Part shown: one piece after another, positions 37,048 through 38,469 of the stretch
Layout of the letters: each line of letters opens with the position of its first letter
Numbering within the stretch: position 1 is the stretch's first letter
Assembly: GCF_001618685.1 (NCBI RefSeq)
Contig: NZ_CP014342.1
Location: 558,001 to 622,000, forward strand
Source: Geobacillus subterraneus
Lineage (GTDB): Bacteria > Bacillota > Bacilli > Bacillales > Anoxybacillaceae
Reading direction: 5' to 3'
Length of the DNA stretch: 64,000 bases
The notes under the pieces: generated by a model
Seen by the model: only the letters and a program-made list of their open reading frames with translations
Database searches by the model: none
What the model was told of the DNA's origin: nothing
Made by a program: the position numbers and the translations under genes

Positions 37048-37809
37048 ATGAGCGAGAACAAAACGGTTCGATTCATCATTACGCGCCAAGATCGTCCGGA
37101 CTCTGCGCCATATGAAGAAGAGTTTGTCATCCCGTACCGCCCGAACATGAACGTCATTTCGGCGCTCATGGAAATCCGCCGCAACCCGGTCAACGCCAAA
37201 GGCGAAAAAACGACACCGGTCGTTTGGGAAATGAACTGTTTGGAAGAAGTGTGCGGAGCATGTTCGATGGTGATTAACGGCAAGCCGCGCCAAGCGTGTG
37301 CGGCCTTGATCGACCAGCTCGAGCAGCCGATCCGCCTCGAGCCGATGCGCACGTTCCCGGTCATCCGCGACTTGGTCATCGACCGGAGCCGGATGTTTGA
37401 TGCGCTAAAACGCGTCAAAGCATGGATTCCAATCGACGGAACGTACGACTTGGGTCCGGGTCCGCGCATGCCGGAGCGGAAGCGGCAATGGGCGTACGAG
37501 CTGTCCAAATGCATGACGTGCGGGGTCTGTCTTGAAGCGTGCCCGAACGTCAACAGCAAGTCGAACTTTATCGGCCCGGCGCCGCTGTCGCAAGTGCGGC
37601 TGTTTAACGCCCATCCGACCGGAGCGATGCATAAAGCTGAGCGGCTGCGGGCGATTATGGGCGACGGCGGTTTGGCCAACTGCGGCAACTCGCAAAACTG
37701 TGTGCAGTCGTGCCCGAAAGGCATTCCGCTGACGACGTCAATCGCCGCGTTAAACCGCGACACGACGATCCAAATGTTCCGCGATTTCTTTGGCAGCGAC
37801 GAAGCGTAA
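37048..37809 (+). CDS. sdhB: Succinate dehydrogenase iron-sulfur subunit
   Basis: Passes electrons from FAD to the membrane quinone site. The product has 253 residues. The 2Fe-2S ligands lie in NCLEEVCGACSMVINGKPRQ plus the following A-C, the 4Fe-4S ligands in CMTCGVCLEACP near 152-163, and the 3Fe-4S region in NCGNSQNCVQSCPKGIPLTT near 211-230. The N-terminal domain is the ferredoxin fold and the C-terminal part is helical. The ATG lies one base after the sdhA stop, with GAGGAAGTGAAG as ribosome site inside sdhA. A terminator closes the operon. Confidence 0.97.
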   Translation: MSENKTVRFIITRQDRPDSAPYEEEFVIPYRPNMNVISALMEIRRNPVNAKGEKTTPVVWEMNCLEEVCGACSMVINGKPRQACAALIDQLEQPIRLEPMRTFPVIRDLVIDRSRMFDALKRVKAWIPIDGTYDLGPGPRMPERKRQWAYELSKCMTCGVCLEACPNVNSKSNFIGPAPLSQVRLFNAHPTGAMHKAERLRAIMGDGGLANCGNSQNCVQSCPKGIPLTTSIAALNRDTTIQMFRDFFGSDEA

Positions 37810-37823
37810 CAGTTGAACCTCTC

Positions 37824-37856
37824 ATCCCCTCCGTGGCCAGCCATGGAGGGGATTTT
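37824..37856 (+). terminator. Intrinsic terminator after sdhB
   Basis: ATCCCCTCC pairs with GGAGGGGAT, with an inner GG/CC pair, and is followed by TTTTGCGC. The T-run is short, so some read-through toward gerE is possible. Confidence 0.8.
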
Positions 37857-37940
37857 GCGCTTGCCCAGCCCCCTTGTCTTTGATCAGGTGGGGAGGCGAA
37901 AAAAAGACCTATTTTTCTATTAGATAAGCAAAATTTCGTC

Positions 37941-37968
37941 ACCGCCGCCCTTGCTCTCACATACGATA
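37941..37968 (+). promoter_or_regulatory. Sigma-K promoter of gerE
   Basis: AC (37941-37942), 17 bp and CATACGATA (37960-37968) match the sigma-K pattern AC-N17-CATAnnnTA exactly, placing transcription near 37975 in the late mother cell. Confidence 0.82.
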
Positions 37969-38015
37969 TGGTGAGGAAATACCCATCCGGCAGTTCGGGC
38001 CCATTGAGAGCAAGG
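37949..38015 (+). repeat. Inverted repeat spanning the gerE promoter and ribosome site
   Basis: CCTTGCTCTCA (37949-37959) and TGAGAGCAAGG (38005-38015) are perfect 11-bp complements. The right arm overlaps the first four bases of the gerE SD AAGGAGGG (38012-38019). The left arm lies upstream of the expected sigma-K start site. Confidence 0.8.
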
Positions 38016-38028
38016 AGGGTTACAACCG

Positions 38029-38253
38029 TTGAAGGATCAATCGTTTCAATCGAAGCCGCTGTTGACAAAGAGAGAAAAAGAAGTCTTCGAATTGCTCGTG
38101 CAAGACAAGACGACGAAGGAGATCGCCAAAGAGCTGTTTATCAGCGAGAAAACTGTTCGCAACCATATTTCGAATGCGATGCAAAAGCTTGGGGTCAAGG
38201 GGCGCTCGCAAGCGGTCATTGAATTGCTTCGAATGGGCGAACTTGAACTATAA
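38029..38253 (+). CDS. gerE: Sporulation transcription regulator GerE
   Basis: GerE is the last mother-cell regulator in sporulation; it activates and represses coat genes together with sigma-K. The 74-residue protein is a bare LuxR/FixJ-type helix-turn-helix: LLTKREKEVFELLVQDKTTK near 11-30 and ELFISEKTVRNHISNAMQKL near 35-54, then GRSQAVIELLRMGEL, close to the Bacillus sequence in memory. Translation starts at TTG 38029, 10 bases after AAGGAGGG. A perfect sigma-K promoter precedes it. The SD forms part of an inverted repeat that only longer read-through transcripts would contain. Confidence 0.96.
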   Translation: MKDQSFQSKPLLTKREKEVFELLVQDKTTKEIAKELFISEKTVRNHISNAMQKLGVKGRSQAVIELLRMGELEL

Positions 38254-38302
38254 ACGATGCCGGCTTTCCCTTTTCGGATGGCCGGCTGTTATGTTCCTTT
38301 GC

Positions 38303-38340
38303 GGCCGGACGAGGCTTTGCCGCCTGTCTGGCCTTTTGTC
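38303..38340 (+). terminator. Terminator after gerE
   Basis: GGCCGGAC pairs with GTCTGGCC (one mismatch), with an inner AGGC/GCCT stem, followed by TTTTGTC. A GCCGGC/GCCGGC repeat lies just upstream. Confidence 0.65.
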
Positions 38341-38367
38341 TGCAGCGGCGTTCTATATTATTTTGTA

Positions 38368-38395
38368 TTGATTATGTCCCCCGGTATTGTAAAAT
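38368..38395 (+). promoter_or_regulatory. Candidate promoter of the marR-like gene and racE
   Basis: TTGATT (38368-38373), 16 bp and TAAAAT (38390-38395). Confidence 0.45.
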
Positions 38396-38469
38396 GAAAA
38401 ATAGAATGGCCGTTGGCTGAGGCACGTTGTTTTGGGGCCAGGCCGCGAAAATGATCAAGGGGAGATTGT

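What the first reader, a model, noticed from the sequence alone, without database searches (positions are those of the whole stretch)
37949..38019. Built-in lock on gerE translation that only sigma-K transcripts escape
A perfect 11-bp inverted repeat has its left arm inside the sigma-K promoter (before the start site) and its right arm over the SD site. RNA reading through from sdhCAB would carry both arms and hide the SD. RNA started by sigma-K near 37975 lacks the left arm and is open. The same logic is known for the T4 lysozyme gene, where early long transcripts are locked. Here it would keep GerE off in vegetative cells despite a leaky upstream terminator.
Basis: partly seen in the sequence, partly recalled or inferred. 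Interest (0 to 1): 0.65.

Follow-up and report, generated by a model that had tools for sequence, protein, structure and literature searches.

The report
Read-through lock on gerE translation
In Geobacillus and its relatives, the promoter of the late sporulation gene gerE carries a sequence that can pair with the gene's ribosome-binding site, so RNA that runs in from upstream genes should be poorly translated while RNA started at the proper promoter is freer.

Summary
CCTTGCTCTCA (37949-37959) and TGAGAGCAAGG (38005-38015) are perfect 11-bp complements. The left arm lies in the spacer of a sigma-K-type promoter; the right arm reaches into the SD of gerE. Among 257 SD-bearing ORFs in 464 kb of the same genome, gerE has the strongest long-range anti-SD.

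The SD is predicted to pair with the spacer in 39 of 40 family genomes (nine genera), although the spacer is highly variable and pairs in several registers. Opening the SD costs about 10.4 kcal/mol in read-through RNA, 5.2 in sigma-K RNA and 5.7 with shuffled spacers; 24 of 28 distinct spacers beat their shuffles. Outside the family the pattern is sporadic (15 of 77).

The closest precedent is in the same cascade: a hairpin is proposed to lock B. subtilis sigG read-through RNA and cannot form in the native transcript (PMC5942855). T4 gene e is the tested case (PMC3014915). All five sigG loci tried gave the same step. So this is a new, lineage-specific member of a known kind. Read-through RNA and the translation block remain untested.

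The parts
37048..37809 (+). sdhB, upstream gene of the likely read-through transcript
   Evidence: ORF; Fer2_3/Fer4 Pfam matches
37824..37853 (+). hairpin after sdhB with a short U tail (UUUUGCGC); possible weak terminator
   Evidence: I2; -24.4 kcal/mol; not flagged by the terminator scan
37939..37942 (+). -35 element TCAC of the sigma-K-type promoter
   Evidence: sequence; TCAC or TAAC at this place in the 33 aligned family sequences
37943..37959 (+). 17-nt promoter spacer; carries the anti-SD left arm
37949..37959 (+). left arm CCTTGCTCTCA
   Evidence: I6
37960..37968 (+). -10 element CATACGATA
   Evidence: sequence; CATA invariant in 33 family sequences
37974..37975 (+). inferred sigma-K start of transcription
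   Evidence: inferred from the -10 position, not mapped; 5' ends from about -20 to +10 around it give a similar low opening cost
38005..38015 (+). right arm TGAGAGCAAGG
   Evidence: I6
38012..38019 (+). Shine-Dalgarno sequence AAGGAGGG of gerE
   Evidence: sequence; invariant in 33 family sequences
38029..38253 (+). gerE, 74 aa, TTG start
   Evidence: Pfam GerE PF00196 E 7.5e-24

Best explanation
The spacer of the gerE sigma-K promoter carries an anti-SD. RNA that enters gerE from upstream (sdhCAB here; a thioesterase gene in several relatives) includes the spacer, and this 5' strand pairs with the SD 45 nt downstream and keeps ribosomes off. RNA started by sigma-K RNA polymerase begins downstream of the spacer, cannot form the helix, and is translated. 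The lock would keep the late mother-cell regulator GerE from being made outside its time despite read-through. Shown by sequence and computation: the complementarity, its maintenance across the family, and the predicted difference in SD accessibility. Inferred: that read-through RNA is present, that it is poorly translated, and that this is why the arms are kept.
For: Perfect arms, and rank 1 of 257 ORFs in the genome sample. 39 of 40 family genomes have at least 0.55 of the SD 8-mer predicted to pair with the spacer at 37 C, and 38 of 40 at least 0.5 at 60 C. Spacer shuffles: 24 of 28 distinct pairs at p<=0.05, mean opening cost 10.4 against 5.7 for shuffles. Drift control: of 22 spacers with at least 3 differences from the family consensus, 13 pair with their own SD region better than 95% of random mutants with as many changes at random positions (mean p 0.096); with the changes kept at the observed positions, 7 of 22 do (mean p 0.19). 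Swap control: own pairs beat permuted pairs, P about 0.02 with 8 SD types. In the window's register, 16 cells have changes on both sides against 7.4 shuffled, and pairing beats every slid version. L034, L038, L040 and L044 spell the 20-nt complement with different 3 nt left out, as expected if promoter spacing (17 nt) and pairing are both constrained (alignments; my reading). Switch-like dependence on the 5' end in four genomes. The same kind of step at sigG in 5 of 5 genomes tried.
Against: No transcript or translation data. RNAalifold on the fixed family alignment does not choose the long-range helix; it draws a hairpin over the -10 and a leader/SD helix; I attribute this to register shifts. 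In the pair count, the number of pairs with two-sided change (2 against 2.6 shuffled) and of further pair types (6 against 8.6) do not exceed shuffles, and one slid version (+2) has nearly the same covariation score (0.179 against 0.180). The swap test rests on 8 SD types, since 14 nt around the SD are invariant. L042 has no lock (0.01), and L009, L035, L042 and L049 do not beat their shuffles, so by that test 8 of 9 genera pass. 17 of 24 non-family genomes with the thioesterase gene within 66 nt show no significant lock, so that gene order does not require one. 16 of 21 sdhB-adjacent family members have a strong terminator-like hairpin. The sigma-K transcript still has a 5-6 kcal/mol SD cost. 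spoIIID, a negative control, rises from 3.9 to about 8 in the window's genome.
Confidence: 0.7

Rival explanations
1. Chance or composition: a pyrimidine-rich spacer naturally resembles an anti-SD, and the shared ancestry of one family repeats one accident.
For: Whole-fold z-score only -1.04; shuffled family spacers already pair to 0.31 of the SD on average; swap test only P about 0.02; drift null at observed positions passed by only 7 of 22.
Against: 24 of 28 spacers beat composition-matched shuffles; spacers far from the consensus (10-11 of 17 differences, genus g2) still pair, p<=0.007 and <=0.013 in the two drift nulls; non-family spacers tested in the same ways stand out little or not.
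Confidence: 0.12
2. DNA-level element: the two arms are inverted binding sites for a DNA-binding regulator of the gerE promoter, and RNA pairing is incidental.
For: The left arm lies in a promoter; inverted repeats are typical operators.
Against: The arm sequence differs between genera in content and register while complementarity to the SD stays, unlike a conserved site; the arms are 45 nt apart, one reaching into the SD.
Confidence: 0.08
3. Action in trans: upstream RNA ending in or after the spacer acts as an antisense RNA on the SD of sigma-K gerE mRNA, tuning GerE made during sporulation.
For: The same complementarity would allow it; in 18 of 40 family genomes a thioesterase gene ends just before or in the promoter.
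Against: In the window no + strand terminator-like site was flagged between 37600 and 38300; cis pairing at 45 nt should outcompete trans pairing (inference).
Confidence: 0.06
4. Mutational upkeep: template switching between quasi-palindromic arms copies one arm onto the other, so complementarity persists without function.
For: Could explain shifting registers in the spacer.
Against: Would be expected also outside the family; the spacer keeps 17 nt between -35 and -10 in all 33 aligned sequences.
Confidence: 0.04

Closest known systems
Bacillus subtilis sigG read-through hairpin (spoIIG into sigG), PMC5942855 passages
   Same: A sporulation regulator behind another transcription unit; a hairpin (20+ bp) proposed to block translation of read-through RNA and unable to form in RNA from the gene's own promoter. 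My check of five sigG loci gives SD-opening costs of 1.3-6.6 kcal/mol with 40 nt or less upstream of the SD and 9.3-18.6 with 50 nt or more; the left arm reads as lying in the promoter spacer (promoter motif recalled).
   Different: Forespore sigma-F/G promoter and gene; seen at all five sigG loci checked, in two families; gerE's lock is sigma-K-linked, found in one family, in variable registers.
Phage T4 gene e (lysozyme) early-transcript lock, PMC3014915 passages
   Same: Long early transcripts hide the ribosome-binding site, late-promoter transcripts lack the 5' strand, and in related phages late promoters lie in the region that encodes it; a 100-fold effect is reported.
   Different: Phage lysis gene with measured effect; no homology.
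IS10/Tn10 fold-back inhibition of transposase from outside promoters (recalled; not found in the listings)
   Same: RNA from outside promoters folds back on the ribosome-binding site.
   Different: Transposon self-protection; arm comes from the element's end.
RBS hairpin inside the native sigG leader, PMC5942855 passages
   Same: SD pairing in a sporulation mRNA.
   Different: Acts in the native transcript; a similar leader pairing in gerE did not covary here.

Membership tests
Read-through translation lock (T4 e / sigG type) | One arm of a helix covers the SD or start codon | tested here: met
   Right arm 38005-38015 overlaps SD 38012-38019; at least 0.55 of the SD 8-mer pairs with the spacer in 39 of 40 family genomes at 37 C
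Read-through translation lock (T4 e / sigG type) | The other arm lies upstream of the native transcription start, so the native RNA lacks it | tested here: met
   Left arm is in the promoter spacer by sequence; start site inferred, not mapped; in four genomes the low state holds for 5' ends from about 20 nt upstream to 10 nt downstream of it
Read-through translation lock (T4 e / sigG type) | SD predicted closed in long RNA, more open in native RNA | tested here: met
   10.4 against 5.2 kcal/mol over 28 distinct family pairs, shuffled spacers 5.7
Read-through translation lock (T4 e / sigG type) | Arms kept as complements in relatives | tested here: met
   Within the family only: 24 of 28, 13 of 22 and 7 of 22 in two drift nulls; outside it 12 of 76 by the shuffle test, swap test P 0.19
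Read-through translation lock (T4 e / sigG type) | Read-through RNA exists | not testable with these tools
   Only context: short or no gap to an upstream thioesterase gene in 18 of 40 family genomes
Read-through translation lock (T4 e / sigG type) | Long RNA is poorly translated | not testable with these tools
   Needs reporter or in vitro translation
Known Rfam regulatory RNA | Match to an Rfam family | tested here: not met
   (37700-38400): two matches, both far below gathering score
RBS-sequestering hairpin within the native sigma-K leader | Leader strand and SD vary together | tested here: not met
   Permutation P 0.45 (24 SD types) and 0.61 (27 variant types); leader shuffles mean p 0.33 family, 0.51 others

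The most novel reading that the evidence does not exclude
Spore formers use promoter spacers as translation locks for late developmental regulators as a general device: sigG in the five genomes tried and gerE throughout the Geobacillus/Anoxybacillus family, with scattered gerE locks elsewhere that tend to sit behind a closely adjacent upstream gene. The spacer sequence is then under a double constraint, spacing for the sigma factor and complementarity to the SD, and gerE shows an ongoing re-invention of one 17-nt solution from genus to genus.
Probability: 0.35. Interest if true: 0.68.

Novelty: new member of a known kind. Interest (0 to 1): 0.52.

Why it matters
It would show that a terminal mother-cell regulator is insulated from read-through at translation, as proposed for sigG, and that promoter spacers, usually treated as filler, can carry an RNA function. 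It gives a clean, testable two-function sequence and a comparative method (spacer against SD) that can be run over other developmental genes.

Tried and rejected
(1) A conserved local anti-SD inside the sigma-K leader (ACCCAUCC or CCCUUC with GGAGGG): striking by eye across the order, and leader duplexes had mean shuffle p 0.26, but no covariation with variant SDs and no gain over shuffled leaders in the accessibility test. Rejected as a demonstrated lock. (2) Order-wide conservation of the spacer lock: rejected; mean shuffle p 0.435 over 79 non-redundant sequences. (3) RNAalifold on the family alignment does not find the long-range helix. (4) Rfam: nothing near a gathering score. (5) SD opening is weaker in four Geobacillus genomes with spacer CGCCGCTCTTGCTCTCA (L009 group: 6.7 with 4 nt before the spacer, 8.1-8.3 with 23 nt). 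(6) Other regulators: spoIIID was scored in four genomes (maximum 8.1 in the window's genome, 5.7, 6.1 and 4.9 in the others). spoVT and sigK could not be scored (two sigK rows came from a bad parse and are not used). (7) Lock strength by upstream gene inside the family: means 10.1 (14 sdhB-adjacent pairs) and 11.2 (13 thioesterase-adjacent pairs), no clear difference. (8) Literature: the listings showed no title on a gerE read-through lock; the library holds only open-licence papers. Dropped rows: L207 and L208 (gerE not parsed) and L203 (no SD by my pattern). G025 of the family had no gerE match at 1e-25.

Full report
WHAT IS THERE. The window lies in a single-contig 3.47-Mb genome. I infer Geobacillus from context; a relative in another genus of the same family, L042, shows the same sequence as named Anoxybacillus rupiensis L059 in the stretch printed. 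sdhB ends at 37809, gerE is 38029-38253 with a TTG start. Between them is a sigma-K-type promoter: TCAC, 17 nt, CATACGATA (consensus elements recalled; the spacing fits the 14-16 nt gap between a 5-nt -35 and a 10-nt -10 given in passages of PMC517825). The finding's repeat is exact: CCTTGCTCTCA in the spacer and TGAGAGCAAGG running into the SD AAGGAGGG. In the predicted fold, GCC 37944-37946 and GGU 38018-38020 extend it.

IS IT MORE THAN CHANCE HERE. The whole-region fold is unremarkable against shuffles (z -1.04). As a specific feature it is not: among 257 SD-bearing ORFs found by a simple caller in the window plus 20 sampled 20-kb stretches of the same genome, gerE has the strongest duplex between its SD region and the stretch 33-90 nt upstream (-25.4; mean -11.0, sd 3.7) and the longest helix (11; next 8).

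COMPARATIVE TEST. gerE was found in 14 of 14 genomes of the genus, 40 of 41 of the family at 1e-25 and 371 of 397 sampled from the order at 1e-22. I read upstream regions for the 40 family members and for further loci; 187 parsed sequences were reduced to 79 non-redundant ones, three of them from the family. Order-wide, spacer-to-SD duplexes are close to shuffled spacers (mean p 0.435). In the family they are not: 24 of 28 distinct spacer/SD pairs raise the cost of opening the SD to a level reached by at most 5% of shuffles, mean 10.4 against 5.7 kcal/mol; the 76 others average 6.0 against 5.7, with 12 of 76 at p<=0.05. The four family pairs that fail are L009 (shared by four genomes), L035, L042 and L049; by genus, 8 of 9 pass. 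At least 0.55 of the SD 8-mer is predicted to pair with the spacer in 39 of 40 family genomes at 37 C (38 of 40 at 0.5 or more at 60 C); the exception at 37 C is L042. By distinct pairs, 27 of 28 reach 0.5 against 15 of 77 outside, where L065 had been added to the 76. The Fisher P of 2.6e-13 there ignores relatedness.

MAINTENANCE RATHER THAN ANCESTRY. The spacer is highly variable inside an otherwise conserved promoter-leader region (alignment A1, 33 sequences). Complementarity is kept in different ways: genus g7 L036 pairs CCTTGCTTTCAC with GTGAAAGCAAGG, a matched change from the window's arms; L034, L038, L040 and L044 spell the 20-nt complement with different 3 nt left out; genus g2 uses CCCTTCTTGC with GCAAGGAGGG, one G-U pair included. 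Random mutants of the consensus with as many changes pair less well: 13 of 22 spacers with at least 3 differences lie beyond 95% of mutants when positions are random, 7 of 22 when the observed positions are kept. Own pairs beat permuted pairs with P about 0.02. In the window's fixed register 76.7% of cells pair and the slid versions reach at most 59.5%; 16 cells have two-sided changes against 7.4 in shuffles, but the number of pairs with such changes and of further pair types do not exceed shuffles, and one slid version nearly equals the covariation score. RNAalifold on the same alignment does not choose this helix.

HOW IT WOULD WORK. In four genomes scanned, the computed opening cost of the SD depends on the 5' end like a switch: 10-16 kcal/mol with the spacer included, and at most about 6 once the 5' end lies within about 20 nt upstream to 10 nt downstream of the inferred start. 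Upstream context gives read-through a route. Searching only for SdhB and the thioesterase, sdhB is the nearest in 21 of 40 family genomes, 16 of them with a strong terminator-like hairpin (the window's has tail UUUUGCGC). In 18 a 4HBT thioesterase gene is nearest, its stop 38-44 nt before the spacer in nine genomes and 1 nt before it in eight of the nine of genus g2 (the ninth, L057, was scored -32), without a convincing terminator. One genome (L049) had no hit in the stretch held. The one genome without a lock (L042) has the longest sdhB gap (322 nt) and the strongest terminator score among family members; this is a single case. Inside the family lock strength does not differ clearly between the two contexts. 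Outside it, 7 of 24 genomes with the thioesterase within 66 nt have a significant lock against 5 of 52 others (Fisher P 0.043), a post hoc comparison that ignores relatedness; 17 of 24 have none, so that gene order alone does not require a lock.

CONTROLS FROM KNOWN SYSTEMS. Passages of PMC5942855 state that in B. subtilis a large hairpin is proposed to block translation of sigG read-through RNA from the spoIIG promoter and cannot form in the native transcript. I retrieved sigG from five genomes; all five show the step (opening cost 1.3-6.6 with 40 nt or less upstream of the SD, 9.3-18.6 with 50 nt or more), the left arm reading as part of the promoter (motif recalled). spoIIID, scored in four genomes, stays at 6.1 or less in three and rises from 3.9 to 8.1 in the window's genome, smaller than the steps at gerE (window's genome) and sigG. 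Passages of PMC3014915 describe the T4 gene e case with a reported 100-fold effect. So the kind is known; gerE is a new member, consistent only within one family.

WHAT IS NOT SHOWN. No transcript map, no translation data. The B. subtilis passages read here treat gerE as sigma-K dependent (PMC5540618) and report CitB binding at the gerE 3' UTR (PMC7430163); the passages seen do not address read-through into gerE.

Noticed in passing
37974-38028 and relatives: The sigma-K leader of gerE is strongly conserved across much of the order (GACTAAATATATACCCATCC ... GCTGGCGAAGGCAAGGAGGG type). It contains a pyrimidine tract complementary to the SD, but this did not covary; function unknown.
   Followed up: partly
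37956-37975 (-10 region): In the family alignment RNAalifold draws a small hairpin over the -10 region, with its outer pair U-A in 13 and C-G in 10 of 33 sequences.
   Followed up: no
37908-37929: CCTATTTTTCTATTAGATAAGC upstream of the -35 is conserved, with few changes, in several family genera; it resembles a SpoIIID box as I recall it. Not tested.
   Followed up: no
genus g2 loci L050-L058: The stop codon of the upstream thioesterase gene overlaps the -35 of the gerE promoter (scored 1 nt before the spacer in eight of nine genomes), leaving no room for a terminator.
   Followed up: partly
genomes G049, G120, G130, G187, G272, G333: gerE matches are much weaker (about 1e-23; congeners of G120, G130, G272 and G333 reach about 1e-38). 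Some may be split genes like the gin-interrupted gerE of B. cereus (PMC5595907 passages). Not examined.
   Followed up: no
L233 (sigG locus of the same genome), also L229-L232: The proposed sigG read-through hairpin is present, with opening cost 14.9-18.6 kcal/mol for RNA with 50 nt or more upstream of the SD in L233.
   Followed up: yes
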